DNA from: Vreelandella songnenensis
GTDB lineage: Bacteria; Pseudomonadota; Gammaproteobacteria; Pseudomonadales; Halomonadaceae
Direction of reading: 5' to 3'
NCBI RefSeq assembly: GCF_003002925.1
Contig: NZ_PVTK01000001.1
Location: forward strand, 372,001-436,000
DNA: 64,000 bases
Below the pieces are notes generated by a model. The model was not told where the DNA came from. It saw only the letters and a program-made list of their open reading frames with translations, and ran no database searches. This document shows positions 32,980-47,479 of the stretch, one piece after another. The position numbers and the translations under genes were made by a program. Each line of letters opens with the position of its first letter. Position 1 is the first letter of the stretch.

Positions 32980-33231
32980 GGGGCTTCTCCTTGCTAATTA
33001 GCCACCTATACCAGCGCTAGACTCACCTTTTCATCCAACGCTGTCAATCCCGCCATGGACGGGTTTCCCTGGTACGTAAACTTCTTGAGCGAGAGTACTT
33101 TTTAACGCCTCATCGCCCTAAATACCAGCCCTAGAGTAAGACGGCTGGACCCAAGGTGTGCTCTCGACCGGCGATCAGGCCGACGAGTACGACGAATTCA
33201 CGGCCAACAAAGCATCGATAAAAATACTTTA

Positions 33232-33264
33232 AGCTTAAAAATTTTAAACTTGAATTTTTAAGCT
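33232..33264. promoter_or_regulatory. Perfect 12-bp inverted repeat, likely MarR operator
   Basis: AGCTTAAAAATT (33232-33243) and AATTTTTAAGCT (33253-33264) are exact reverse complements separated by 9 nt; a second palindrome TTTAAGCTTAAA overlaps the left arm. The site covers the -35 of the predicted promoter, 49 bp before the first gene. A MarR repressor is encoded third in the operon and is the obvious binder; that pairing is inferred. Confidence 0.7.
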
Positions 33265-33312: not shown

Positions 33313-35598
33313 ATGAAAATCGCCTGCCTGGGTGGAGGGCCTGCCGGTCTCTATTTTGCCATCAGCATGAAGCTCAAGGACGCGTCTCACGAGATAGTGG
33401 TCATCGAGCGCAACCGTGCCGATGACACCTTTGGCTGGGGCGTGGTGCTATCCGATGAAACGCTGGATAACCTGGCCGCCAACGACCCGGTGAGTGCCGA
33501 GCGCATTCGCGAACACTTTGCCTACTGGGACGATATCGCAGTCGTTCACAAAGGCGTCAAGACGGTCTCCACCGGCCATGGGTTCTGCGGTATCGGACGC
33601 AAGCAGCTTTTGCTTCTCTTGCAGGTCCGCGCCCGCGAGCTGGGCGTCGAGATGCGTTTTGAAACCGATGCCAGCGAAGCCGCTATCGAACAGTACCGGC
33701 GTGAGTATGACCTGGTACTCGCCGCAGACGGCCTCAACTCACGCACCCGCCAGACCTACGCCGAACACTTCAAGCCCGATATCGATGTGCGGGCGTGCAA
33801 GTTCGTCTGGCTGGGCACGCACCAGACCTTCAACGACGCCTTTACGTTTATCTTCGAGAAAACCGAACACGGCTGGGTATGGGCGCATGCCTACCAGTTC
33901 GACAGCGACACGGCGACCTTTATCGTCGAGTGCAGCGAAGCCACCTGGCAGGCGTTCGGCTTTGGCGAACTCAGCCAGCAGGAATCCATCGCGCTTTGCG
34001 AGCGAATCTTTGCCAAGCACCTGGGCGGCCATGCGCTGATGACCAATGCCCACCACATCCGCGGTTCCGCCTGGATCAATTTTCCCCGGGTGCTGTGCGA
34101 GCGCTGGAGTTTTGAAAACGTCGTGCTGATGGGCGACGCCGCGGCCACGGCCCACTTCTCGATCGGCTCGGGCTCCAAATTGGCCCTGGAGAGCGCCATT
34201 GCGCTGGCCAACTACCTGCATAGTGAAAGCAGCATGGAAACCGCGCTTGCCCGCTATGAAGAGGAGCGCCGCTTCGAGGTGCTGCGTCTGCAGTCGGCGG
34301 CGCGCAACTCGACGGAGTGGTTCGAGCAGATCAAGCGCTACCTGGACCTTGACCCGGTGCAGTTCAACTACTCGCTGTTGACCCGCTCCCAGCGTATCAG
34401 TCATGAAAACCTGCGGGTACGTGACCCGCAATGGCTGGAAAGTGCGGAGCGCTGGTTTCAAGCCCAGGCGGGCAACCCGAACAGCGCGCGGGCGCCGATG
34501 TTTGCGCCCTATCAGCTTCGCGACATGCGCCTTGTCAATCGCGTGGTGGTCTCCCCCATGGCGCAGTACAAGGCCGTCGACGGCTGCCCTAACGACTGGC
34601 ATTTCAGCCACTACGCCGAGCGTGCCAAGGGGGGTGCGGGCCTGGTATATACCGAGATGACCTGCGTCAGCGCCACCGGGCGCATTACGCCGGGCTGCCC
34701 GGGACTATACGCCCCGGAACATGAAGCGGCGTGGAAGCGTCTGTGCGATTTCGTCCATCAGGAAACCAAAGCCAAGCTTTGCGCTCAGATCGGCCACTCG
34801 GGGCCCAAGGGTTCAACTCAGCTGGGCTGGGAAGAGATGGATGCGCCGCTTGGTGAAGATAACTGGCCGATCATGGCGGCCTCCAAGCAGCCCTGGTCCG
34901 AGCGCAACCAGGTGCCGCGCGCCATGATGCGAGAAGACATGGAGCGCGTACGCGATGAGTTCGTTGAAGCGGCACGCATGGCCGACCGCGCCGGGTTCGA
35001 CATGATCGAGATTCACGCGGCCCACGGCTACCTGCTCTCGTCATTCATTACCCCGCTCACCAACCATCGCGATGACGAGTACGGCGGCTCGCTGGATAAC
35101 CGCCTGCGCTATCCGCTTGAGGTCATCAAGGCGGTACGCGCGGCCTGGCCTGCGCACAAGCCGCTCGCCGTGCGTATTTCCGCCAACGACTGGCGCGGCG
35201 ATGAAGGGGTGACACCGGACGAAGCGGTCGAGATCGCCAAACGCCTGCGTGAGGCAGAGGTCGACATCATCGACGTTTCCGCCGGGCAGACCTCCACCCA
35301 GGCGAAGCCGGTTTACGGGCGCATGTTCCAGACCCCCTTTTCTGATCGCATTCGCAACGAAACGCCCATTGCTACCATGGCCGTGGGCAATATCTATCAG
35401 GCGGATCACGTGAACTCGATCCTGATTGCCGGTCGTGCAGATCTGGTGTGCATCGCCCGCCCGCACCTGGCCGACCCTTACTGGACGCTGCACGTGGCCG
35501 CCTCGCTGGGTGACGATGAAGTGGAGTGGCCTGCCCCCTACCGGGCCGGGGGCGCTCAGCTTAAGCGCCTGGCCGAGCGCAACGAGGGTTGGATATGA
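33313..35598 (+). CDS. Fused aryl-CoA FAD monooxygenase / old-yellow-enzyme reductase (2-aminobenzoyl-CoA or salicylyl-CoA type)
   Basis: A 761-residue two-domain flavoenzyme. Residues 1-390 are an FAD monooxygenase: dinucleotide loop [11 protein letters not shown] (6-16), a DG motif at 139-140 in [10 protein letters not shown], and a ribityl-binding [15 protein letters not shown] (273-287). Residues about 395-761 are an NADH:flavin oxidoreductase: [19 protein letters not shown], the His-containing [19 protein letters not shown] and the FMN-site [12 protein letters not shown]. This fusion is known for 2-aminobenzoyl-CoA monooxygenase/reductase of Azoarcus and for proteins annotated salicylyl-CoA 5-hydroxylase; it hydroxylates and de-aromatises the ring of the CoA thioester. 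GGGAG precedes the ATG. It is first in the operon, and the next gene overlaps by ATGA. Neighbours favour the amino substrate, without proof. Confidence 0.88.
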
Positions 35599-36347
35599 GT
35601 CAGGCAAAACACCTGCACGGCAAGCGGGTAGTCATCACCGGCGGCGGCAGCGGTATAGGCGCGGACATGGCGCTGGCGTTTGCCAGGGCCGGGGCGAACG
35701 TCACTATCACCGGCCGGCGCCAGGAAGTGCTTGAAGCACTCGCTCGCAAGCACGATGGGCTTTCGTATAACGTGGTGGATGTTACCGACGAGGCCGCCAT
35801 GGTGGCCCTGTTCGAGACGCTCGGGAGCGTGGATATCGTGATCGCCAACGCCGGGGCCGCGGAAAGCGCGCCTCTTGCCAAGACCTCCTTCGAGCAGTGG
35901 CAGCGCATGCTGGATGTCAACCTGAGCGGGGTATTTCTGACCCTGCGCGAAGGGCTGAAACGGCTCAACGATGGCGGGCGAATGATTGCCGTGGCCTCCA
36001 CCGCTGGGCTCAAGGGCTACGCCTACGTAGGCGCCTACTGCGCGGCCAAGCACGGCGTGGTCGGCCTGGTACGCGCGCTGGCGGCGGAAACTGCCGCCCG
36101 CAACATGACCATCAACGCGCTCTGCCCCGGCTTTACCGATACGCCGCTGCTGGCGGCAAGCGTTGACACTATCGTGACCAAGACCGGGCAGTCTGCCGAA
36201 CAGGCCACCGCCCACTTCCAATCCACCAACCCGACGGGGCGCCTGGTAATGCCCGCCGAGGTGACTGCCACGGCACTGTGGCTATGCGGGCCGAACAGCG
36301 GCGCCATCACTGGCCAGGCCATTTCCATTTCAGGGGGCGAAGTATGA
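35595..36347 (+). CDS. Short-chain dehydrogenase (3-hydroxyacyl-CoA dehydrogenase type)
   Basis: A 250-residue NAD(P)-dependent Rossmann protein with the cofactor loop [12 protein letters not shown] near 15-26, NAG in [10 protein letters not shown], the catalytic Ser in VASTAGLKG and the Tyr-Lys pair in AYCAAKHG. It ends with the usual ISGG. In this setting it probably oxidises a hydroxyl group of the CoA-bound ring or ring-opened intermediate. The ATG at 35595 overlaps the previous stop (ATGA); a TTG two codons earlier is less likely. The next gene overlaps its stop in the same way, so the first three genes are translationally linked. Confidence 0.88.
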
Positions 36348-36796
36348 CGGCACAGAGCCTGAGCAAGGAGCGCCTGCGCTTGTGGCTACGCATGCTGCGG
36401 GTGACTCGCCAGACGGAATCCATTCTGCGTGAGCGCCTGCGTACCGAGCACGACACCACCCTGCCCCGCTTCGACGTCATGGCCGCCCTGTATGCGGATA
36501 AAGACGGCCTGAAGATGAACGAGCTTTCCAGGCGGTTACGGGTTTCCAACGGCAATGTCACCGGCATTGTCGACCGGCTGGTGGAAGACGGCACGGTGGA
36601 GCGTATTGCCATCGAAGGCGACCGCCGCGCCACGCGGGTATGTTTGACCCCCGCTGGCCGCGAGACCTTCAGCGCCATGGCCGTCGAGCACGAGCGCTGG
36701 ATCAATGCACTATTCGAAGGCGTGGGCGAAGAGGACGCCCACCATATCGGCGAGCTGCTGCACTGCTTGCCTACCACTGCCCACGACCCCGACTAA
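36344..36796 (+). CDS. MarR-family transcriptional regulator
   Basis: A 150-residue winged-helix repressor: helices [20 protein letters not shown], a recognition helix in [22 protein letters not shown], and the wing [21 protein letters not shown] with the family's DRR. MarR proteins of CoA-dependent aromatic pathways commonly release DNA when they bind the aryl-CoA intermediate. The 12-bp inverted repeat at 33232-33264 over the operon promoter is its probable target, making the system self-regulated. The ATG at 36344 overlaps the SDR stop and has AGGGGG upstream; longer frames starting inside the SDR gene are not used. Confidence 0.9.
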
Positions 36797-36819
36797 CAAC
36801 CAGAGGCGAGAACAACAAG

Positions 36820-37631
<812 letters not shown>

Positions 37632-37632
<1 letters not shown>

Positions 37633-38765
37633 TGAGCGATACGCGTTTTCTACACTGGCCTTTTTTCGAAGATTGCCACCGCGAGCTTGCCGACAAGCTC
37701 GAAGCCTGGTGCCGCGAGACGCTGCCTCGCGCGCACGATGACGTGGACGCTACCTGCGTCGCACTGGTGCGCGACCTGGGCAAGGCGGGTTTTCTGGCAG
37801 GCACCGCCGGTGAGCATATCGATGTACGCAGCCTGTGCCTGATTCGTGAAACGCTTGCCCGCCACGACGGGCTGGCCGACTTCGCCTTTGCCATGCAGGG
37901 ACTCGGCACCGGGGCGATCAGCCTTTACGGCAGCGACGAGCAGAAACGCTGGCTGGGCAAGACCCGCCGGGGCGAAGCGATTTCCGCCTTTGCCCTGAGC
38001 GAGCCGCGTTCCGGCTCGGACGTGGCGCAGCTGGATACGCGTGCCGAACGCGACGGCGGCGGCTACCGGCTGAATGGCGAGAAGACATGGATCTCCAACG
38101 GCGGAATCGCGGATATCTATACGGTGTTCGCCCGCACCGGCGAAGGCCCCGGGGCCAAAGGTCTTTCGGCCTTTCTGGTACCCGCGGATACGCCGGGGCT
38201 GGAAATCCGCGAGCGGCTGGAGGCGGTGGCGCCCCACCCGCTGGCGCGCATCGGGTTCAAGGATATGTACCTGCCGGAAAGTGCACTGATCGGCAAGCCC
38301 GGGCAGGGGTTTCGAATCGCCATGTCGGTACTCGACGTGTTTCGCTCGACGGTCGGCGCGGCGGCGCTGGGCTTTGCCCGCCGGGCGCTGGACGAGTCGC
38401 TGACGCGCAGCCGTGACCGCGAACTGTTTGGCGCCGCTCTCGCGGATTTGCAGATGGTACAGGGCCACCTGGCGGATATGGCGCTCAATGTGGATGCCGC
38501 AGCACTACTGGTTTACCGCGCGGCCTGGACCAAGGACCAGGGCGCCGAGCGGGTGACCCGTGAAGCGGCCATGGCGAAGCTCTTTGCCACGGACCAGGCT
38601 CAGCTGGTGATCGACCAGGCGGTGCAGCTCCACGGCGGTGATGGCGTGCGCAAGGGCCATATCATCGAGAGCCTGTATCGTGAGATTCGTGCGCTGCGGA
38701 TCTACGAGGGCGCATCCGATGTGCAAAAGGTGGTGATCGCCCGCAGCCTGCTTGCCGAGGAGTAA
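37632..38765 (+). CDS. Acyl-CoA dehydrogenase
   Basis: A 377-residue FAD enzyme of the acyl-CoA dehydrogenase family. The middle domain has [15 protein letters not shown] and [15 protein letters not shown] (FAD contacts); the C-terminal helical domain has [26 protein letters not shown] cut by the catalytic Glu in [10 protein letters not shown]. It would introduce or shift a double bond in the alicyclic or opened CoA ester, passing electrons to ETF. Its ATG shares one base with the previous stop. A 159-bp gap with a hairpin separates it from the CoA ligase gene. Confidence 0.9.
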
Positions 38766-38862
38766 ACCGCCAGCCATCGATTATCGCCACATGCTAAAGC
38801 GTTAAAGCCGTCACCATACCAACAACAATAACTGCGATAACGCACTACGCCAGACACCGTAT

Positions 38863-38891
38863 CCCGCAGGCGCCGTTCAAACGCTTGCGGG
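38863..38891 (+). other. Intra-operon stem-loop before the CoA ligase gene
   Basis: CCCGCAGGCG (38863-38872) and CGCTTGCGGG (38882-38891) form a 10-bp stem with one G-U pair and a 9-nt loop, 33 bp before the ligase ATG. No T-run follows. It may protect or process the downstream half of the transcript. Confidence 0.45.
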
Positions 38892-38924
38892 AATAAACAA
38901 CGACACTAAATACGGAGGTTGGTC

Positions 38925-40577
38925 ATGTACATCGAATCGGCGCATCTGGATACGTTTGCCCGAGATAATCTGCCACCTGTTGAGGACCAGCCTGAGTTTC
39001 TGCTCGCAGGCTTCAACTATCCTGAACGGCTCAACGCTGGCGTTGAGCTTTGCGACCGCCTGGTGTCTCAAGGCTTGGGTGGCCGAATCGCCCTGGCCGG
39101 CAACGGACGCCGGCGCACCTATCAGGAACTTGCCGAGTGGACGAATCGCCTGGCGCGCGTTCTGGTGGAAGACCTGGGCGTTGTCCCCGGCCACCGCGTG
39201 CTGATACGTTCAGCCAATAACCCGGCGATGGTAGCCTGCTGGCTGGCAGCCACCAAGGCAGGCGCGGTGGTGGTCAACACCATGCCGATGCTGCGCGCCA
39301 AGGAGCTTACCCAGGTTATCGACAAGGCGGAGGTGCATCTCGCCCTGTGCGATACTCGCCTGGTCGATGAGCTGCTGGCGTGCCAGACGCAGTGCCCCGG
39401 GCTTACCCGCATCGTCGGTTTCGACGGCACGGCCAGCCACGACGCCGAGCTTGACCGGCTGGCCTTGAACAAACCTGCCCATTTCGAGGCGATAGACACC
39501 GCCGCCGATGACGTGGCGCTTCTGGGGTTTACCTCGGGCACTACCGGCTCCCCCAAGGCCACCATGCATTTTCATCGCGACCTCTTGATGATTGCCGACG
39601 GTTACGCAAAAGACGTGCTCAAGGTGACCGCGGATGACGTTTTCGTGGGCTCGCCACCCTTGGCGTTTACCTTCGGCCTGGGGGGCCTTGCGATTTTTCC
39701 GCTGCGCTTCGGGGCCTGCGCCGTCCTGCTCGAGCATGCCTCCCCGCCCAACATGATGGAAATCATCCGCGAGTATCAGGCAACGGTCGTGTTCACCGCA
39801 CCCACCGCCTACCGGGCGATGCTTGCCTCGCCTACCCGTCATGAGGATCTTGGCAGCCTGCGCGTGGCGGTATCCGCCGGTGAAACCCTGCCGGCGCCCA
39901 TTTATCACGACTGGATCAAGCAGACCGGCACGCCCATCATCGACGGGATTGGCGCAACGGAAATGCTGCATATCTTCATTTCCAACCGCCTGGATGACCA
40001 CCGCCCCAACTGTACCGGCAAACCGGTAACCGGCTACGAAGCGCGAATCGTCGACAGCGACATGCAGGACGTGCCAGTGGGTTCCATAGGCAAGCTTGCC
40101 GTGCGCGGCCCCACGGGCTGCCGGTACCTGGCTGACCGGCGCCAGCGTCACTACGTCCAGGAAGGCTGGAATATTACCGGAGACGCGTTTTATAAAGACG
40201 ACGAGGGGTACTTCCACTTCGCGGCCCGCAACGATGACATGATCATCTCGGCGGGCTACAACATTGCTGGCCCCGAGGTGGAGTCGGCACTGCTTGCCCA
40301 CCCCGCGGTCAAGGAGTGCGCCGTGATTGGTGCCACGGACCCGGAACGCGGCCAGATCGTCGAAGCCTTTGTGGTATTAAACGCTGGATTTGAAGAAGAT
40401 GATGCCTGCAGGCAGGCGCTGCAAGATTTTGTAAAACAAACGATTGCGCCTTACAAGTACCCTCGCTCGGTACGCTTTATCGATACATTGCCCAAAACGG
40501 CCACCGGAAAGGTGCAGCGTTTTCGGCTGACGCAAACCCGCAAGGACAGCGACAGCAGCGCACCGAGCATCCACTAG
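38925..40577 (+). CDS. Aryl-CoA ligase (2-aminobenzoate/benzoate-CoA ligase type)
   Basis: A 550-residue ANL-superfamily adenylate-forming enzyme that activates a carboxylic acid with ATP and CoA. Motifs: P-loop TSGTTGSPK at 203-211, GATEM in the middle, GWNITGDAFYKDDEGYFHF and the hinge AARNDDMIISAGYNI, and the C-terminal catalytic Lys529 in KTATGKVQRF. The N-terminal pattern (LPP-EDQPEF...YPERLNAG) is that of benzoate and 2-aminobenzoate CoA ligases. It should be the entry step that makes the CoA thioester for the fused monooxygenase. The ATG at 38925 has GGAGG 7 nt upstream. The precise acid is inferred from context. Confidence 0.9.
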   Translation: MYIESAHLDTFARDNLPPVEDQPEFLLAGFNYPERLNAGVELCDRLVSQGLGGRIALAGNGRRRTYQELAEWTNRLARVLVEDLGVVPGHRVLIRSANNPAMVACWLAATKAGAVVVNTMPMLRAKELTQVIDKAEVHLALCDTRLVDELLACQTQCPGLTRIVGFDGTASHDAELDRLALNKPAHFEAIDTAADDVALLGFTSGTTGSPKATMHFHRDLLMIADGYAKDVLKVTADDVFVGSPPLAFTFGLGGLAIFPLRFGACAVLLEHASPPNMMEIIREYQATVVFTAPTAYRAMLASPTRHEDLGSLRVAVSAGETLPAPIYHDWIKQTGTPIIDGIGATEMLHIFISNRLDDHRPNCTGKPVTGYEARIVDSDMQDVPVGSIGKLAVRGPTGCRYLADRRQRHYVQEGWNITGDAFYKDDEGYFHFAARNDDMIISAGYNIAGPEVESALLAHPAVKECAVIGATDPERGQIVEAFVVLNAGFEEDDACRQALQDFVKQTIAPYKYPRSVRFIDTLPKTATGKVQRFRLTQTRKDSDSSAPSIH

Positions 40578-40621
40578 ACCGCCTCTCAGCCATAAAACGT
40601 CAACAAAATGAGGGAATCAAC

Positions 40622-41764
40622 ATGAAGAACATTACCCGCTTCGGCCTTGGCCTGCTGCTTTCATCCAGCGTGATGGCAGTGCAAGCTGACGATGTCAAGA
40701 TCGGCATGATCACAACACTCTCCGGCGGCGGCTCTCACCTTGGGGTGGATGTTCGTGACGGCTTCATGCTGGCCATCGAGCAGTCCGGCCGCGATGACAT
40801 CGAAGTGCTTATCCAGGATGATGCCAACCGCCCGGACCTGGCGCGCAGCCTCGCCAACGAGTTCATGCAGCGCGACGACGTGGACATCATGACCGGTATC
40901 ATCTGGTCGAACCTGGCCATGGCCGTGGTACCTGCGGTGACTCGCCAGGGCACCTTCTATCTTTCGCCCAATGCCGGACCCTCGGATCTTGCCGGGCGCA
41001 TGTGCCACGAGAACTACTTCAACGTGGCCTACCAGAACGACAACCTGCACGGCGCCATGGGCGCGTACATGCGCAAGGAGGGTTTTGAGCGCCCCATCAT
41101 CATGGCGCCCAACTACCCGGCAGGTACCGATGCCCTGGCAGGCTTCAAGCACCTTTATGAAGGTGAGGTTGTCGACGAGCTGTATACCCAGATGGGCCAG
41201 ACCGACTACGCCGCCGAGATTGCCCAGATCCGCGCCAGCGACGCCGATAGCCTGTTCTTCTTCCTGCCCGGCGGCATGGGCATCTCCTTCATGAAGCAGT
41301 GGGAGAGCTCCGGCGTGGACATTCCCATCTTCGGCGCGGCGTTCTCGTTCGATGAAATCCTGATCAAGGCGGTCGGCAGCGCTGCCATCGGTGCGCGCAA
41401 CACCTCCCTGTGGGCCTACGACCTGGATAACGAGACCAATCATCAGTTCGTGGACAGCTTCCGTGAGGCCTACAGCCGCACACCCACTCTGTATGCCGCC
41501 CAGGGCTTCGACACCGCCAATCTGATTCTGAGTGCCCTGGATAGCGTCCACCCGGATGACCAGGATGCGTTTCGTGAAGCGCTGCGGGCCGCTGACTTTG
41601 ACAGCGTGCGCGGGGAGTTCCGCTTCGGCCCCAACCATCACCCCATCCAGGATATCTACGTGCGTGAAGTCGTCGAGGGCGAGGACGGCCAGCCGACCAA
41701 CCGCTTGATCGGCGTTGCCGTCGAAGACATTCAGGACGTCTATTACGAACAGTGCCAGATGTGA
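40622..41764 (+). CDS. ABC importer substrate-binding protein (branched-chain/aromatic type)
   Basis: A 380-residue periplasmic binding protein of the Peripla_BP_6 group. A signal peptide of about 22 residues (GLGLLLSSSVMAVQA) precedes DDVKIGMITTLSGGGSHLGVDVRDGF, the usual first strand and ligand loop. It delivers ligand to the LivHM permeases encoded next. Relatives in aromatic clusters bind benzoate derivatives rather than amino acids, so the aryl acid used by the cluster is the likely ligand (inference). It is 44 bp downstream of the ligase, with GAGGGAA before the ATG. Confidence 0.9.
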   Translation: MKNITRFGLGLLLSSSVMAVQADDVKIGMITTLSGGGSHLGVDVRDGFMLAIEQSGRDDIEVLIQDDANRPDLARSLANEFMQRDDVDIMTGIIWSNLAMAVVPAVTRQGTFYLSPNAGPSDLAGRMCHENYFNVAYQNDNLHGAMGAYMRKEGFERPIIMAPNYPAGTDALAGFKHLYEGEVVDELYTQMGQTDYAAEIAQIRASDADSLFFFLPGGMGISFMKQWESSGVDIPIFGAAFSFDEILIKAVGSAAIGARNTSLWAYDLDNETNHQFVDSFREAYSRTPTLYAAQGFDTANLILSALDSVHPDDQDAFREALRAADFDSVRGEFRFGPNHHPIQDIYVREVVEGEDGQPTNRLIGVAVEDIQDVYYEQCQM

Positions 41765-41824
41765 TCCACTCGGGCCAGGGGCTGAAACCCGGCCCTTCTC
41801 TTCACTCGGTCAAGGATACCCAAC

Positions 41825-42745
41825 GTGTCCGTTACTCTGCTAATCGAGCAATTACTTAACGGCGTGCAGCTTGGCACGATGCTGTTTCTGATGGCCAGCG
41901 GCCTTACCCTCGTGTTCGGCGTGATGGGGCTGATCAACCTGGCCCACGGCTCCTTCTACATGGTGGGCGCTTACGCGACGGCAGCGGTGACCGCCTCAAC
42001 CGGCTCTTTTCTGACAGGGCTGGCCGCGGGCATGGCAGCAGCAGCCGTGGCCGGGGCACTGGTGGAGCTGATCGTGATACGCAGGCTCTACCATCGCCCG
42101 CACCTGGACCAGGTGCTGGCTACCTTCGCGCTGATTCTCATCTTTTCGGAAGGCACGCGCTGGATTTTCGGCTCGTCCCCCTTGCGACTCAGCCCGCCAT
42201 CCTGGCTGACCGGTTTCGTGACGCTACCCGGTAATACTCGCTATCCCATTTATCGGCTGGTATTGATCGGCGTGGGTATCGTCATTGCCATTGCGCTCTA
42301 CGTTCTGATTTCCAGAACGCGCCTGGGGATGCGTATCCGCGCCGGCGAAAGCGACCGCGAGATGATCGGTGCGCTGGGGGTGAACATCTCCAAGCTCTAT
42401 ACGGTAGTGTTTGCTCTCGGCGCGGGCCTTGCCGGGTTGGCGGGGGCGCTGGTGGGCGCCCTGCAGTCGGTACAGGTGGGCATGGGCGAGCCGGTGCTGA
42501 TTCTGGCCTTCGTGGTGATCGTCATCGGCGGCATCGGGTCGATCAAGGGCGCACTGTTGGGCGCCTTGCTGGTCGGCGTGGTGGATACTCTCGGGCGCGT
42601 CTATCTGCCGATCTTCTTTCGTGCGTTCATGCCGCCATCCGAGGCATCCGGGGTAGGCGCTGCGCTGGCAGCCATGCTGATCTATATCCTCATGGCGATC
42701 ATTCTTGCGTTCAAGCCAAAGGGACTGTTCTCCGCTCATGATTAA
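41825..42745 (+). CDS. ABC importer permease, LivH type
   Basis: A 306-residue inner-membrane permease of the branched-chain amino-acid family with about eight hydrophobic segments. It has the N-terminal LLNGVQLGTMLFLMASGLTLVFGVMG and GLINLAHGSFYMVGAY of LivH proteins and the conserved cytoplasmic loop TRLGMRIRAGESDREMIGALGVN near the ATPase contact. GTG start with AAGGA 8 nt upstream. It overlaps the LivM gene by 8 bp and pairs with it to form the transmembrane pore. Confidence 0.92.
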   Translation: MSVTLLIEQLLNGVQLGTMLFLMASGLTLVFGVMGLINLAHGSFYMVGAYATAAVTASTGSFLTGLAAGMAAAAVAGALVELIVIRRLYHRPHLDQVLATFALILIFSEGTRWIFGSSPLRLSPPSWLTGFVTLPGNTRYPIYRLVLIGVGIVIAIALYVLISRTRLGMRIRAGESDREMIGALGVNISKLYTVVFALGAGLAGLAGALVGALQSVQVGMGEPVLILAFVVIVIGGIGSIKGALLGALLVGVVDTLGRVYLPIFFRAFMPPSEASGVGAALAAMLIYILMAIILAFKPKGLFSAHD

Positions 42746-43781
42746 CACGACTTCCCAACGCGCCCCCGGTGCCGTAAAGGCTCCCGGAACCGAGCGCCAT
42801 TTTGATCGCAAGGGGCTTGTGCAGATGACCCTGCTTGGCCTGCTGCTGATACTCCCGGTGGTGGCCTATTTTCTGGGGCATCTCTACTACGTCAATCTGG
42901 CCTCACGTATTACCATCATTGCCATGGCGGCGGTGGGCCTTAACCTGGCGATTGGCTATGGCGGCATGGTGAGCTTCGGGCATGCGGCCTACTTTGGCCT
43001 GGGCGGTTACGTCGCCGGTATCAGCGCTTACCACGCCTTTGACTTCACGCCTTTCATGAGCTGGCCCATCAGCGTACCGGGCAGCGATAACCTGCTGGTC
43101 ATCTGGCTGGCAGCGGCGTTGCTGTGTGCGCTGCTGGCACTGGTGATCGGCGCCATTTCGCTGCGCACCACCGGGGTGTATTTCATCATGATCACTCTCG
43201 CCTTTGCCCAGATGATCTACTACTTCGCCAACTCCTGGCCAACCTACGGCGGCGAGGACGGCCTGCCGATCTATATTCGCAACACGCTGCCGCTTTTGGA
43301 TACCGGCAACGCGCTGACCTATTTTCTGATCTGTTTCATCGGCCTGATACTGGCCATGGCGCTGACTTCACGGCTGATGAAATCGCGCTTTGGCGCAGCG
43401 CTGACCATGGCAAGGCTCAACGACGTCCGTCTGGCTACGTCGGGTATCAGCCCCTACCCCATTCGTCTGGTGGCTTTCGTCATCTCCGCGGCCATTACCG
43501 GGCTTGCCGGGGCGCTGTATGCCGACTTGAACGGCTTTGTCAGCCCGACCGTGCTCAGCTGGCATTTTTCCGGCGAGCTGATGGTCATCGTGATTCTGGG
43601 CGGTGTCGGGCGGCTTTATGGCCCGCTTGCCGGGGCGGTGCTGTTCGTGATGATGGAAACCCTGCTGGGCGGTATCACGCAGTACTGGCAGCTCTTCCTG
43701 GGGCTGGTGCTGCTGGGCGTGGTGCTGTTTGCCCAGCACGGTGTCATGGGGCTACTGGCCGGGAGAGAACGCAATGAGTGA
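42738..43781 (+). CDS. ABC importer permease, LivM type
   Basis: A 347-residue partner permease with about nine membrane segments: VGLNLAIGYGGMVSFGHAAYFGLGGYVAG, LRTTGVYFIMITLAFAQMIYYF and the coupling segment SRLMKSRFGAALTMARLNDVRLATSGI. The start is the ATG at 42738 (MINTTSQ), inside the end of the LivH gene; a longer frame from 42705 is unlikely. Its stop overlaps the start of the first ATPase gene by 8 bp, so the importer genes are tightly coupled. Confidence 0.92.
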   Translation: MINTTSQRAPGAVKAPGTERHFDRKGLVQMTLLGLLLILPVVAYFLGHLYYVNLASRITIIAMAAVGLNLAIGYGGMVSFGHAAYFGLGGYVAGISAYHAFDFTPFMSWPISVPGSDNLLVIWLAAALLCALLALVIGAISLRTTGVYFIMITLAFAQMIYYFANSWPTYGGEDGLPIYIRNTLPLLDTGNALTYFLICFIGLILAMALTSRLMKSRFGAALTMARLNDVRLATSGISPYPIRLVAFVISAAITGLAGALYADLNGFVSPTVLSWHFSGELMVIVILGGVGRLYGPLAGAVLFVMMETLLGGITQYWQLFLGLVLLGVVLFAQHGVMGLLAGRERNE

Positions 43782-44526
43782 CGCCGTTCTATCACTACAT
43801 CACCTGCATAAGCGCTTTGGCGCCCTGCACGCGACCAACGATGTCTCGCTGGATCTCAGGCCGGGAGAGATCCATGCCCTGATCGGCCCTAACGGCGCCG
43901 GCAAATCGACCCTAATCGGCCAGATTGCCGGCAACATCCGCCCGGACGAAGGCAGCGTTCATCTGGCGGGTACCGCGATCACTAGCATGAGCGTGGCCCA
44001 GCGCGCCCGCCTCGGGCTCGGGCGCAGCTTTCAGGTGTCGTCGCTTGCCGAGCCGCTTTCGGTGATGCGCAACGTGATGATGAGCGTGCAGGCGCTGCAG
44101 GGGCACAGTTTCCGGTTCTTCAAGCGCGTCTCCCGCGATGCGGCCCTGCTTGAACCCGCCTACCAGGCGCTGGAGCACATGCAGCTTTCCCATCGCGCCT
44201 GGACGCCGGTGTTCGAGCTTTCCCACGGCGAGCGCCGCCAGGTGGAAGTTGCTTGCGCTCTGGCGCTCAAGCCCCGTGCTCTGCTGCTCGATGAGCCCAT
44301 GGCGGGTCTCGGGCCGGAAGGCTCGGCCAAGCTGACGGAGCTTCTCGAAGTGCTCAAGCGGGAAGTGCCGATCCTGCTGATCGAGCACGATATGGAAGCG
44401 GTGTTTCGCCTGGCCGACCGCATCTCGGTGCTGGTCTCGGGTAGCGTCATCGCCCACGGCGATAGCCATACGATCAAGCAGGACCCGCGCGTGCGTGAAG
44501 CCTACCTGGGAGATTCCAATGCTTAG
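43774..44526 (+). CDS. ABC importer ATPase, LivG type
   Basis: A 250-residue ATP-binding subunit. Walker A is GPNGAGKST at 38-46, the Q-loop lies in GRSFQVSSL, the signature reads LSHGERRQVEVA, Walker B is ALLLDEPMAG and the switch His is in LIEHDM. The signature has His in place of the first Gly of LSGGQ, as in several LivG proteins. The ATG at 43774 (MSDAVLS) with GGGAGAG upstream is preferred over a start 45 bp earlier. It overlaps both neighbours and powers the LivHM permease pair. Confidence 0.92.
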   Translation: MSDAVLSLHHLHKRFGALHATNDVSLDLRPGEIHALIGPNGAGKSTLIGQIAGNIRPDEGSVHLAGTAITSMSVAQRARLGLGRSFQVSSLAEPLSVMRNVMMSVQALQGHSFRFFKRVSRDAALLEPAYQALEHMQLSHRAWTPVFELSHGERRQVEVACALALKPRALLLDEPMAGLGPEGSAKLTELLEVLKREVPILLIEHDMEAVFRLADRISVLVSGSVIAHGDSHTIKQDPRVREAYLGDSNA

Positions 44527-45199
44527 AGTTGCCGATATCGAAACGTTCTACGGCCCCTCCCAGGCGCTGTTCGGTGTAAGCCTCGAGGTAAAGGCGGGCG
44601 AAATGGTGGCCTTGATGGGCCGCAACGGCATGGGCAAGACCACGACCATCCGTTCGGTGTTCGGCCTTACACCGGCAAGCCGCGGCACTATCGAGTTTGA
44701 ATCGAAGGATCTGCGCCGTCTGCCCGCTTACCGCATTGCCAAGGCGGGGCTTGGCTTGGTGCCGGAGGGGCGGCGCTGCTTTCCCAACCTCACGGTGCGT
44801 GAAAACCTGCTGGTCACCGCTCGCCCGGGGGAGTGGACGCTGGATAAGGTGGAGGCGCTGTTCCCGCGCCTGGAAGAGCGCCGTACCCAGATGGCCAAGA
44901 CGCTTTCTGGCGGTGAGCAGCAGATGCTGGCCATTGGCCGAGCGCTGATGACCAACCCACGCCTTTTAGTGCTCGACGAGGCTACCGAAGGGCTGGCCCC
45001 GGTCATTCGTCAGGAAATCTGGCGGGCGATTCGCCTGCTCAAGGAGCAGGGCCAGGCCACTCTGCTGGTCGATAAGTCATTGAGCGAAATACTGCCGATT
45101 GCCGACCGCTGCACCATTCTAGAGAAAGGCTGCACCGTGTGGGACGACAGGCCCGCCGCCCTGGACGCCACCGTTCGCGACCGTTACCTGGGCGTGTAG
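44519..45199 (+). CDS. ABC importer ATPase, LivF type
   Basis: A 226-residue second ATP-binding subunit with Walker A GRNGMGKTT, signature LSGGEQQMLAIGRAL and Walker B LLVLDEATEGLAP, the last being the family's usual LivF form. The switch position reads LLVDKSLSEI, with Lys where most transporters have His; many LivF proteins have a Gln/Lys-like residue here. The ATG at 44519 overlaps the LivG stop and has GGGAG upstream. It completes the five-component importer. Confidence 0.92.
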   Translation: MLRVADIETFYGPSQALFGVSLEVKAGEMVALMGRNGMGKTTTIRSVFGLTPASRGTIEFESKDLRRLPAYRIAKAGLGLVPEGRRCFPNLTVRENLLVTARPGEWTLDKVEALFPRLEERRTQMAKTLSGGEQQMLAIGRALMTNPRLLVLDEATEGLAPVIRQEIWRAIRLLKEQGQATLLVDKSLSEILPIADRCTILEKGCTVWDDRPAALDATVRDRYLGV

Positions 45200-45221
45200 C
45201 CGAACCACCGAGCAAAGAGAC

Positions 45222-45629
45222 ATGATGCCTTTTACCACACAGCGAAAAGTCCGTTTTCAGCACTGCGACCCGGCAGGGATCGTGTTTTACCCGCGTTATT
45301 TCGAGATGATAAATTCAGTGGTCGAAGACTGGTTCGAAGAGGTCTTGCACCACGACTTCAATCATCTGCATGTTGAAACCGGCCAGGGCGTGCCTACGGT
45401 CTCGATCGAGACTCAGTTCCATGCGCCGAGCCGCCTGGGCGAGCGGCTCAGGTTCGAGCTTGCGGTAGAGGCCATCGGCCGCAGTAGCCTGACCCTTCAA
45501 ATCTCGGCTTACTGCGGTGAGCAGAAGCGACTGACCAGCCGCTCCACCCTGGTGTTCATGGATCTCGATAGCGGACAATCGATGCCCTGGGTCGAAGGGA
45601 TACGCCAGCACATTACCGTAGATAACTGA
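45222..45629 (+). CDS. Acyl-CoA thioesterase (4-hydroxybenzoyl-CoA thioesterase-like)
   Basis: A 135-residue hot-dog-fold protein with the family motif HCDPAGIVFYPRYFEMIN; Asp16 corresponds to the catalytic Asp of 4-hydroxybenzoyl-CoA thioesterase. In this cluster it probably hydrolyses stalled or dead-end CoA esters to free CoA, or releases a late product. Such housekeeping thioesterases are common beside CoA-dependent aromatic pathways. AGAGA lies before two consecutive ATGs. It follows the importer by 22 bp in the same operon. Confidence 0.88.
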   Translation: MMPFTTQRKVRFQHCDPAGIVFYPRYFEMINSVVEDWFEEVLHHDFNHLHVETGQGVPTVSIETQFHAPSRLGERLRFELAVEAIGRSSLTLQISAYCGEQKRLTSRSTLVFMDLDSGQSMPWVEGIRQHITVDN

Positions 45630-45643
45630 TAAGGATAATTCTC

Positions 45644-46051
45644 ATGAGCGACGCCAGCTTTGTAAAGCTTCTTCACCCTTCCCACTGGAAGCCCGCCATC
45701 GGCTACGCCAATGGCGTGGTGGCTTCCGGGCAGACGGTGTTTGTAGGGGGGCAGATCGGCTGGAACGCCGACCAGCGCTTCGAGAGCGACGACTTTGTCG
45801 CGCAGGTGAATCAGGCGCTGCAAAACATTGTAAGCATTCTGAAAGAAGCCAATGCCGGGCCGGAGCATCTTGTTCGCTTGACCTGGTATGTCACGGATAA
45901 ACGGGAGTATCTGGCACGCCTCAAGGAAGTGGGCGCGGCCTACCGCGAGGTACTGGGCAAGCATTTCCCGGCGATGACCATGGTCCAGGTGGCCGGGCTC
46001 GTCGAGGACCAGGCCAAGGTGGAGATCGAAGCCACGGCGGTCATTCCCTAG
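45644..46051 (+). CDS. RidA-family (YjgF/UK114) protein lacking the canonical Arg
   Basis: A 135-residue member of the Rid family: VFVGGQIGWN, QALQNIVSILKEANAG, VRLTWYVTD and the C-terminal VEIEATAVI. RidA enzymes hydrolyse enamines and imines, using an Arg in the PARS motif before the last strands. Here that segment reads FPAMTMVQVAG, so Met111 stands where the Arg should be, and canonical imine deaminase activity is doubtful; non-RidA subfamilies also lack it. AAGGA is 8 nt before the ATG. As last gene of a cluster that may create a cyclic enamine, a role on that intermediate is tempting but unproven. Confidence 0.87.
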   Translation: MSDASFVKLLHPSHWKPAIGYANGVVASGQTVFVGGQIGWNADQRFESDDFVAQVNQALQNIVSILKEANAGPEHLVRLTWYVTDKREYLARLKEVGAAYREVLGKHFPAMTMVQVAGLVEDQAKVEIEATAVIP

Positions 46052-46090: not shown

Positions 46091-46112
46091 TAGCGCCCCT
46101 GCCGGGGCGCTA
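46091..46112. terminator. Convergent-end hairpin including the hydrolase stop codon
   Basis: TAGCGCCCC (46091-46099), TGCC loop, GGGGCGCTA (46104-46112). The last three bases are the complement of the TAG stop of the leftward hydrolase gene. It lies 40 bp after the rightward cluster ends, so it could stop both transcripts; there is no T-run. Confidence 0.6.
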
Positions 46113-46964
46113 GCCAATGTCGTGAAACGCTTTAATCCATTCAACGAAACAGCCATTTTCCAGGTAGTGCTCAAGAATCGAAAAATGGTCGGCTGACGCC
46201 AGCACATGATGTCGAACCGGGTGGCCCGCTTGCGCCAGATGAGTGACGTAATCCGCCATCTGCTGCTCGAACGCTTCGGGCTCCTGCCCGCCTACGGCCA
46301 GTTGAACGGGCACCTGCAGGGGTGGCGTCAGCCCCAGCGGGCTGAACTCCTCGATATCGCGTCCGGTCAGTTGAAGCTTGGGCTGCAGCCAGGACCACGG
46401 AAACGGGCGCAGGTCATACAGCCCGCTGACACACAGCGCGCCGCGAATGATGTGATTGGGCAGCCCGAAGACACGCTCCCAATCCGTTGAAACCAGCATC
46501 GCGCTCAGGTGCCCGCCCGCCGAATGGCCTGACACACTCAGCTGAGCTGGATCTACCTCCAAGGCAGCGGCATTTCGGTATACGTAGGCAATCGCTGCCT
46601 GGCTTTGGCGAACCAGTTCACTAAAGCGCACCTGCGGACACAGCGCATAGTTGACCACGGCGACGGTAATACCCGACGCTACCAGGTCATCGACGATAAA
46701 GCTGAATTCCCGGTGGCCAAGCGAGCGCCAGTAGCCGCCGTGGTAGAACACGTGCACGGGCGCGTTTGGGCACGGCGCATGAAAGACATCCATGCGCTCG
46801 GCCAGGCTAGGCCCATAAGCCAGGTCCAGGCTCACGCGGTGTTTGGCGCGCGACGCTTCGCTGCGCTTGCGCCAATCATGCACCAATACGCTGGGGTCTC
46901 GCCCGAGCATCGGGTCGTGAGCCCGGTCAATTTCCTCTTGCGTCGCGTAGTGTCGATACAGCAC
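46110..46964 (-). CDS. Alpha/beta hydrolase, kynurenine formamidase-like
   Basis: A 284-residue hydrolase with the oxyanion motif HGGYW at 75-79, nucleophile Ser148 in SGHSAGG, and late Asp/Glu and His candidates (GGQEPEAF, SADHFSI). This pattern is that of the HGG-family arylformamidases, which turn N-formylkynurenine to kynurenine; a general esterase is the alternative. The GTG at 46964 has AAGGAG at ideal spacing, so the first 44 codons of the longer open frame are not used. It follows dsbB by 11 bp. The location facing a probable anthranilate cluster supports a link to tryptophan breakdown, but only by proximity. Confidence 0.8.
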   Translation of the reverse strand: MLYRHYATQEEIDRAHDPMLGRDPSVLVHDWRKRSEASRAKHRVSLDLAYGPSLAERMDVFHAPCPNAPVHVFYHGGYWRSLGHREFSFIVDDLVASGITVAVVNYALCPQVRFSELVRQSQAAIAYVYRNAAALEVDPAQLSVSGHSAGGHLSAMLVSTDWERVFGLPNHIIRGALCVSGLYDLRPFPWSWLQPKLQLTGRDIEEFSPLGLTPPLQVPVQLAVGGQEPEAFEQQMADYVTHLAQAGHPVRHHVLASADHFSILEHYLENGCFVEWIKAFHDIG

Positions 46965-46975
46965 ACCGCTCTCCT

Positions 46976-47479
46976 TTACCGGCGACGAAACGCCAGCCAC
47001 AGCATGCGCAGCGGCACCGCCGCCAGAATCACGAACCCGATCAGCGTCCAGGCGGGCAGCGAAAGTCCCAGGAAGGTGAAATCGATCTCGGCGCACTCGC
47101 CGGAGCTGTTCAGCACCATGGCGATAACATCGCGCATGGGCAGCACATCCATCATATAATCAAGGCCAGGGCCACAGGACGGCACCTGATCAGCGGGCAG
47201 GCTTTGCAGCCAGACGTGGCGCCCGGCAATGAACGCGCCGGTGCCCACTGCCGAAAGCCCCAGCACGCCATAAATACCGGCGCCCACCTTGCCACCGGGG
47301 TTATGAATCGCCGCGACGGCAAAGATCAGCCCGGCGCTAATGACCGCTACCCGCTGAAAAATGCACAGCGGGCAGGGCTCAAACCCGCCGATATGTTCAA
47401 GGCCGAGCGCGACTGCCATCATCAATACACAGAAAGCCAGACCTGCGAGTGCCACTGGGCGAAGTGCTGCCGGGTTCAT
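46976..47479 (-). CDS. dsbB: Disulfide bond formation protein B
   Basis: A 167-residue inner-membrane quinone reductase that reoxidises DsbA. It has four membrane segments, the first periplasmic Cys pair CPLC at 36-39 with the adjacent FQR, and the second pair Cys102 and Cys129. Length and spacing match the DsbB family. The ATG overlaps the gshA stop (ATGA) and has GAGGA upstream, so a glutathione gene and a disulfide-oxidation gene are translationally coupled. Confidence 0.94.
   Translation of the reverse strand: MNPAALRPVALAGLAFCVLMMAVALGLEHIGGFEPCPLCIFQRVAVISAGLIFAVAAIHNPGGKVGAGIYGVLGLSAVGTGAFIAGRHVWLQSLPADQVPSCGPGLDYMMDVLPMRDVIAMVLNSSGECAEIDFTFLGLSLPAWTLIGFVILAAVPLRMLWLAFRRR

What the first reader, a model, noticed from the sequence alone, without database searches (positions are those of the whole stretch)
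33313..46051. Complete CoA-dependent aromatic-acid operon, best explained by 2-aminobenzoate
The cluster links uptake (five-gene ABC importer), activation (aryl-CoA ligase), ring attack (fused monooxygenase/reductase), beta-oxidation-like steps (SDR, crotonase, acyl-CoA dehydrogenase), salvage (thioesterase) and control (MarR). The fused flavoenzyme is the hallmark of the 2-aminobenzoyl-CoA route of Azoarcus; the salicylyl-CoA route is the alternative. A Rid-family protein at the end and a formylkynurenine-type hydrolase next door favour the amino substrate.
Basis: partly seen in the sequence, partly recalled or inferred. Interest (0 to 1): 0.7.

Follow-up and report, generated by a model that had tools for sequence, protein, structure and literature searches.

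The report
Anthranilate-CoA degradation operon with arginine-less Rid
This is a complete bacterial operon for burning anthranilate, a breakdown product of tryptophan, through coenzyme A; the kind is known, but it carries a small Rid-family protein that has lost its family's usual active-site arginine and turns up together with the ring-attacking enzyme.

Summary
In detail: 13 co-directional genes at 33313-46051, of the families named. The substrate call (2-aminobenzoate) is well supported. The ligase is 54% identical to an Arthrobacter ligase shown by assay to make anthraniloyl-CoA. The genome carries tryptophan dioxygenase (TDO) and kynureninase, and no anthranilate dioxygenase over the family cut-off. 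In 11 of 80 named loci TDO lies within about 10 kb of the fused enzyme, in five shortly downstream of the ligase. Two fused-enzyme relatives sit instead with gentisate-type genes, without this crotonase and Rid nearby, so a salicylate locus looks different. The kind is known (Azoarcus, Arthrobacter).

(1) The operon's Rid protein has Met in place of RidA Arg105 (75 of 77 rows from such loci). In 299 genomes of the phylum, matches to this Rid occurred in 41, each of which also has the fused enzyme (found in 42); the operon's crotonase occurred in 39, all among those 42. This suggests a dedicated step, perhaps enamine hydrolysis on a CoA thioester, in a lower pathway that a 2022 curation left out for lack of knowledge. 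(2) A conserved palindrome at 33224-33264 is a likely MarR operator. No enzyme activity is tested.

The parts
33224..33264 (.). conserved inverted repeat, likely operator of the operon's MarR repressor
   Evidence: present in all 16 upstream regions aligned (window, 14 of 15 same-genus loci, L104); single strong match in the window, which is itself in the training set
33313..35598 (+). fused anthraniloyl-CoA (2-aminobenzoyl-CoA) monooxygenase/reductase, AbmA type, 761 aa
   Evidence: PRK08255 1282.9 bits, cut-off 1078; FAD_binding_3 + Oxidored_FMN
35595..36347 (+). short-chain dehydrogenase (start at ATG 35595)
   Evidence: adh_short_C2 1.5e-48
36344..36796 (+). MarR-type regulator
   Evidence: MarR_2 1.6e-11
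36820..37632 (+). crotonase of the PRK08258 family
   Evidence: 474.6 bits, cut-off 330
37632..38765 (+). acyl-CoA dehydrogenase
   Evidence: Acyl-CoA_dh_1 1.6e-44
38925..40577 (+). anthranilate (2-aminobenzoate)-CoA ligase, AbmG type
   Evidence: TIGR02262 over cut-off; best PDB hit anthranilate-CoA ligase 4wv3; 53.7% identical to the pAL1 ligase
40622..41764 (+). periplasmic substrate-binding protein
   Evidence: Peripla_BP_6 6.7e-74
41825..42745 (+). ABC permease, LivH type
   Evidence: homologues in the same order annotated as branched-chain permease
42774..43781 (+). ABC permease, LivM type (start uncertain)
   Evidence: same
43774..44526 (+). ABC ATPase, LivG type
   Evidence: same
44519..45199 (+). 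ABC ATPase, LivF type
   Evidence: same
45222..45629 (+). 4HBT-type thioesterase
   Evidence: 4HBT_2 4.1e-14
45644..46051 (+). Rid-family protein with Met111 at the RidA Arg105 position
   Evidence: PF01042 5.2e-24; Met in 75 of 77 rows; register from alignment with YabJ
46110..47096 (-). convergent alpha/beta hydrolase, possible kynurenine formamidase; probably part of the same neighbourhood
   Evidence: conserved beside the operon in 15 of 15 genus loci; a 42% homologue directly upstream of TDO in L046

Best explanation
An Azoarcus-type aerobic operon for anthranilate (2-aminobenzoate). Anthranilate comes in through the ABC importer or from tryptophan (TDO, a likely formamidase and kynureninase encoded elsewhere in the genome). 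The ligase makes anthraniloyl-CoA. [quoted passage not shown] Inferred from there: the Met-type Rid protein hydrolyses the ring enamine to a beta-keto thioester and ammonia; the SDR reduces the 5-oxo group; crotonase and acyl-CoA dehydrogenase open and oxidise the ring; the thioesterase frees CoA from dead ends; and the MarR protein represses from 33224-33264 until a pathway CoA ester binds it.
For: Ligase 53.7% identical over 534 aa to the Arthrobacter pAL1 ligase, which was expressed in E. coli and assayed as anthranilate-CoA ligase (PMC3534580, passages); best solved relative is an anthranilate-CoA ligase, 295 bits, ahead of benzoate-CoA ligases at 267 and 245. Own genome: TDO and kynureninase over cut-off and adjacent, followed by an alpha/beta hydrolase; no anthranilate dioxygenase over cut-off (best 116.6 bits, cut-off 671.9). 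Genus, 82 genomes: fused enzyme 27, kynureninase 33, both 20, Fisher p 2.6e-5; with matches over cut-off only, 26, 31 and 19, p 1.6e-5. TDO within about 10 kb in 11 of 80 named loci, shortly downstream of the ligase in L099, L102, L106, L112 and L117 and in the unnamed L176; divergent in Ruegeria pomeroyi. Rid and crotonase: all 41 and all 39 genomes with matches also have the fused enzyme (42 of 299). Tree: the window enzyme lies in a 22-row set, SH-aLRT 99, with 7 kynurenine-linked rows.
Against: No enzyme of this operon has been assayed. No Azoarcus locus was among the 80 returned, so direct placement beside the proven AbmA was not done. 7 of 27 fused-enzyme genomes in the genus lack a kynureninase match and 13 of 33 kynureninase genomes lack the fused enzyme. 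The genus and phylum counts are not corrected for relatedness. NCBI names the family salicylyl-CoA 5-hydroxylase/oxidoreductase. The Rid protein lacks the arginine of known imine hydrolases. The operator motif was not found at the genome's own TDO-kynureninase operon.
Confidence: 0.88

Rival explanations
1. A salicylate operon: the ligase makes salicylyl-CoA and the fused enzyme hydroxylates it at C5 toward gentisate.
For: NCBI family name. Two relatives of the fused enzyme do lie with a gentisate-dioxygenase-like gene and a fumarylacetoacetate-hydrolase-family gene: Cupriavidus L036 and G394/L178; the dioxygenases score 311.7 and 306.1 bits with TIGR02272, under its cut-off of 442.1.
Against: No gentisate-type family among the ten proteins scanned at the window locus; the L036 dioxygenase has no homologue (blastp E 1e-10, half its length) in any of the 80 named loci. 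G394, the one of 42 fused-enzyme genomes without a match to this Rid, is of the gentisate type and also has no match to the crotonase family. Kynurenine-gene linkage.
Confidence: 0.05
2. A substituted anthranilate (for example a hydroxy- or methyl-anthranilate from plant or quinolone breakdown) is the main substrate; unsubstituted anthranilate is secondary.
For: A related cluster sits beside quinolone-cleaving genes (Rhodococcus BG43, L037); the importer could take several acids (inference).
Against: TDO and kynureninase linkage points to plain anthranilate; the quinolone genes in BG43 also yield anthranilate (recalled).
Confidence: 0.05
3. Benzoate or another amino-free aromatic acid degraded through CoA.
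For: The ligase is in the benzoate-CoA ligase family; known 2-aminobenzoate ligases also take benzoate (PMC8388817, passages).
Against: No box-pathway family name among the best matches shown for the ten proteins scanned (lists cut at 25); the linkage to tryptophan catabolism.
Confidence: 0.02

Closest known systems
Azoarcus evansii aerobic 2-aminobenzoate clusters (abm; Schuehle et al. 2001, not held; known here through passages of PMC8388817 and PMC4539516)
   Same: CoA ligase, fused monooxygenase/reductase, further degradation by beta-oxidation-type enzymes
   Different: sequence not compared here (not retrieved); whether a Rid gene is in the Azoarcus clusters was not seen
Arthrobacter sp. 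Rue61a pAL1 anthranilate cluster (L032)
   Same: ligase 54% and fused enzyme 51% identical; a Met-type Rid protein nearby
   Different: lower genes are a cupin, a fumarylacetoacetate-hydrolase-family protein and another thioesterase, PaaX-type regulators; no crotonase or acyl-CoA dehydrogenase match in the stretch
Ruegeria pomeroyi DSS-3 megaplasmid cluster (L033)
   Same: same core enzymes, 74% identical flavoenzyme, MarR, Rid
   Different: TDO and hydrolase divergent beside the operon; a cupin gene; no ABC importer or thioesterase in the cluster
RidA/Rid imine deaminases
   Same: family PF01042, invariant Glu127 near the C-terminus (77 of 77 rows)
   Different: Met instead of the catalytic Arg105

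Membership tests
Azoarcus-type aerobic 2-aminobenzoyl-CoA pathway | fused FAD monooxygenase / Old-Yellow-Enzyme reductase | tested here: met
   1282.9 bits against cut-off 1078 over 757 aa; both Pfam domains
Azoarcus-type aerobic 2-aminobenzoyl-CoA pathway | AMP-forming ligase for 2-aminobenzoate | tested here: inconclusive
   homology to an assayed ligase, 53.7%, and to 4wv3; activity itself not testable
Azoarcus-type aerobic 2-aminobenzoyl-CoA pathway | beta-oxidation-type genes in the same unit | tested here: met
   SDR, crotonase, acyl-CoA dehydrogenase co-directional
Azoarcus-type aerobic 2-aminobenzoyl-CoA pathway | fused enzyme groups with proven AbmA | not tested
   no Azoarcus locus among the 80 returned
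[quoted passage not shown]
   needs enzyme assay
Salicylyl-CoA / gentisate route | gentisate 1,2-dioxygenase with the cluster | tested here: not met
   none among the ten proteins scanned; the other four genes are ABC parts
Rid imine hydrolases (RidA, Rid1-Rid3) | arginine at the RidA Arg105 position | tested here: not met
   Met111; of 77 rows 75 Met, one Ile (L051), one Leu (L039)

The most novel reading that the evidence does not exclude
[quoted passage not shown] The arginine that grips a free carboxylate in RidA is not needed, because here the carboxylate is tied up as a CoA thioester. That would give a function to an arginine-less Rid group and supply the ammonia-releasing step of a lower pathway that is still unsolved.
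Probability: 0.4. Interest if true: 0.65.

Novelty: new member of a known kind. Interest (0 to 1): 0.45.

Why it matters
The operon itself places a known route in a Halomonadaceae-like bacterium. [quoted passage not shown] It also suggests that the NCBI product name (salicylyl-CoA 5-hydroxylase) misleads for most of the members seen here.

Tried and rejected
Salicylate as the substrate: considered and put low because gentisate-type neighbours were not found here and mark two relatives with another gene set. The neighbouring hydrolase as the one missing formamidase: not relied on, since the genome's own TDO-kynureninase operon carries another hydrolase; it stays a candidate. Anthranilate dioxygenase as the usual sink of kynureninase genomes that lack the fused enzyme: only 2 of 13 such genomes (G058, G101) have it over the cut-off, so that idea explains little. 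Shared regulation of the operon and the genome's kynurenine operon by the palindrome: no site found there. Placement beside the Azoarcus enzyme: not possible with the loci returned. No structure was predicted and no fold search was run. In one search the frames taken for the genome's Rid paralogues L121 and L124 were wrong; redid this.
Full report
What is there. Thirteen genes lie in one direction at 33313-46051: fused flavoenzyme, SDR, MarR, crotonase, acyl-CoA dehydrogenase, ligase, five-part ABC importer, thioesterase and Rid protein; an alpha/beta hydrolase follows on the other strand. Family scans of ten of the fourteen proteins agree; the four permease and ATPase genes were named by homologues. 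The same order, hydrolase included, is present in 15 of 15 same-genus loci fetched, with 89-91% identity of the flavoenzyme. The nearest named relative in the tree is Litchfieldella anticariensis, of the Halomonadaceae (83% identity); the genome itself is unnamed.

Which acid. The ligase is 53.7% identical over 534 residues to the ligase on Arthrobacter plasmid pAL1. PMC3534580 (passages read) reports that this ligase, expressed in E. coli, makes anthraniloyl-CoA, and concludes that the strain's anthranilate metabolism appears to go only through CoA; the monooxygenase there is putative. The best solved relative is an anthranilate-CoA ligase (295 bits) ahead of benzoate-CoA ligases (267, 245); a modest gap, and known 2-aminobenzoate ligases also accept benzoate (PMC8388817, passages).

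The genome can supply anthranilate from tryptophan: TDO and kynureninase genes are adjacent and over their cut-offs, followed by a hydrolase. Anthranilate dioxygenase is absent at the family cut-off (116.6 against 671.9 bits). In 82 genomes of the genus, 27 have the fused enzyme (one, G073, only as a partial match), 33 have a kynureninase match (31 over cut-off), 20 have both, 7 only the first, 13 only the second, 42 neither; Fisher p 2.6e-5. With matches over cut-off only: 26, 31, both 19, p 1.6e-5. Relatedness is not corrected for. Of the 13 kynureninase-only genomes, 2 have anthranilate dioxygenase over the cut-off.

The looser families (SDR, MarR, dehydrogenase, ligase) include some distant matches. 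One kynureninase match (L076, 30%, 103 bits) is weak. By a rough estimate of 22 kb in a 5 Mb genome, fewer than one TDO would be expected by chance; this was not measured. In L099, L102, L106, L112 and L117, and in the unnamed L176, TDO lies on the same strand within about 1.2 kb downstream of the ligase. In Ruegeria pomeroyi TDO and a hydrolase are divergent beside the flavoenzyme. In a 94-row tree (12 of the 15 same-genus rows were left out beforehand) the window enzyme sits in a 22-row set with SH-aLRT 99 that holds 7 kynurenine-linked rows; the tree used the quick method, and two long branches (L031, L039) are unsure.

The salicylate alternative. Cupriavidus L036 and genome G394 (L178) have the fused enzyme beside a gentisate-dioxygenase-like gene and a fumarylacetoacetate-hydrolase-family gene; the dioxygenases are best matched by TIGR02272 but under its cut-off. 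L036 shows no crotonase or Rid match in its 30 kb (the rest of that genome was not searched); G394 has none in the whole genome at the thresholds used. The window locus has the other set. This is a contrast of gene sets in two cases, not proof of substrate.

The Rid protein. In 77 rows (the window and the 76 loci in which a Rid match was found), the position of the RidA arginine is Met in 75, Ile in L051 and Leu in the haloarchaeal L039. The register is shown by alignment with YabJ and other solved Rid proteins. Of the genome's five other Rid proteins, L120, L124 and L125 have Arg there, L121 Trp, and L122 Val with an Arg beside it. The Rid papers state that this arginine is essential for imine hydrolysis and that Rid4-Rid7, which lack it, probably do not hydrolyse imines (PMC4433059 abstract and passages; PMC5619798 passages). 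In RidA relatives the arginine holds the substrate's carboxylate; on a CoA thioester that carboxylate is not free, so its loss could be an adaptation. This is inference.

Co-occurrence. In 299 genomes drawn from the window's phylum, a model of Rid proteins from these loci (A2, 17 rows, E at most 1e-35) matches 41, the fused enzyme (E at most 1e-200) 42, the crotonase family (E at most 1e-80) 39. All 41 and all 39 lie within the 42. Exceptions: G394 lacks both (gentisate type); G129 has Rid but no crotonase match, with another gene set (L181), and G151 has the genes split across contigs. The Rid lies within 20 kb of the fused enzyme in 36 of 41; not in G182, G214, G151, G294 and G298, the last three with the genes on different contigs. 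Of the 52 Rid places listed I fetched 50 (not G000, the window's own, nor G005, already held as L018): 44 have Met, 6 have Ser; the 6 are the lowest-scoring, second or third copies in six genomes of one genus. The model was built from linked proteins and the thresholds were mine, so some circularity remains; weaker hits in genomes without the fused enzyme were not looked at.

Other parts. The crotonase has Asp154 invariant in 87 of 87 rows and no Glu at the two places where, by recall, hydratases keep their catalytic pair (the mapping is from memory); an isomerase or ring-opening role is therefore as likely as hydration. The flavoenzyme keeps the glycines of its FAD motif in 90 or 91 of 91 rows, the reductase His571 and Tyr573 in 91 of 91 and His568 in 90 of 91; that these are the catalytic residues is recalled.

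Regulation. An AT-rich inverted repeat at 33224-33264 lies about 50-90 bases before the first gene. It is conserved in all 16 upstream regions aligned: the window, 14 of the 15 same-genus loci (L028 was missed by the script's pattern) and L104, while much of the flanking sequence is not. In L104 (Litchfieldella) it is a perfect 34-base palindrome. A weight matrix from the 15 gapless rows puts its best hit within 150 bases before the fused enzyme in 15 of 19 loci tried (scores 2.1 to 32.8; L104 is the only one of the 19 near to the training set); L176 has it before its SDR gene; L032, L103 and L118 do not fit. No convincing site was found at the genome's kynurenine operon. MarR binding is inferred.

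What is known and what is new. The pathway kind is known (Azoarcus, Arthrobacter). The paper searches (open-licence PMC papers only; several listings cut) showed me no paper on this route in Halomonas-type bacteria and, in the 20 of 66 papers listed, none that holds both a Rid term and 2-aminobenzoyl-CoA. The nearest, PMC7118221 (passages), proposes Rid-family proteins as deaminases after ring cleavage in diaminotoluene breakdown, not on a CoA ester. The original Azoarcus gene paper is not held, so it may already mention a Rid-like gene.

Noticed in passing
L032, L037, L055, L181: Fused-enzyme clusters with a Rid protein but other lower genes (cupin and fumarylacetoacetate-hydrolase-family genes in the first three; no crotonase match in L181): a possible second lower pathway for the same first product.
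   Followed up: partly
L036 and L178 (G394): Fused enzyme beside gentisate-dioxygenase-like and fumarylacetoacetate-hydrolase-family genes, without Rid or crotonase in the stretch: possible true salicylyl-CoA members of the family.
   Followed up: partly
L176 and L179 (G182): Operon SDR-MarR-crotonase-ACAD-ligase-TDO-kynureninase-Rid without the fused enzyme; a 46% relative of that enzyme lies about 1.8 Mb away.
   Followed up: partly
L039 and hits H95-H100: Haloarchaeal plasmids carry 34-43% identical fused-enzyme relatives; the Haladaptatus one sits with a ligase, Rid (Leu variant), ACAD, SDR, a MaoC-type gene and a crotonase-family gene.
   Followed up: partly
L014:4559-8873: The genome's TDO-kynureninase-hydrolase operon directly follows a PRK07079-family peptidase-like gene.
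   Followed up: no
Rid paralogues L170-L175: Second or third Rid copies with Ser at the arginine position in six genomes of one genus, more than 20 kb from, or on another contig than, the fused enzyme found there.
   Followed up: partly
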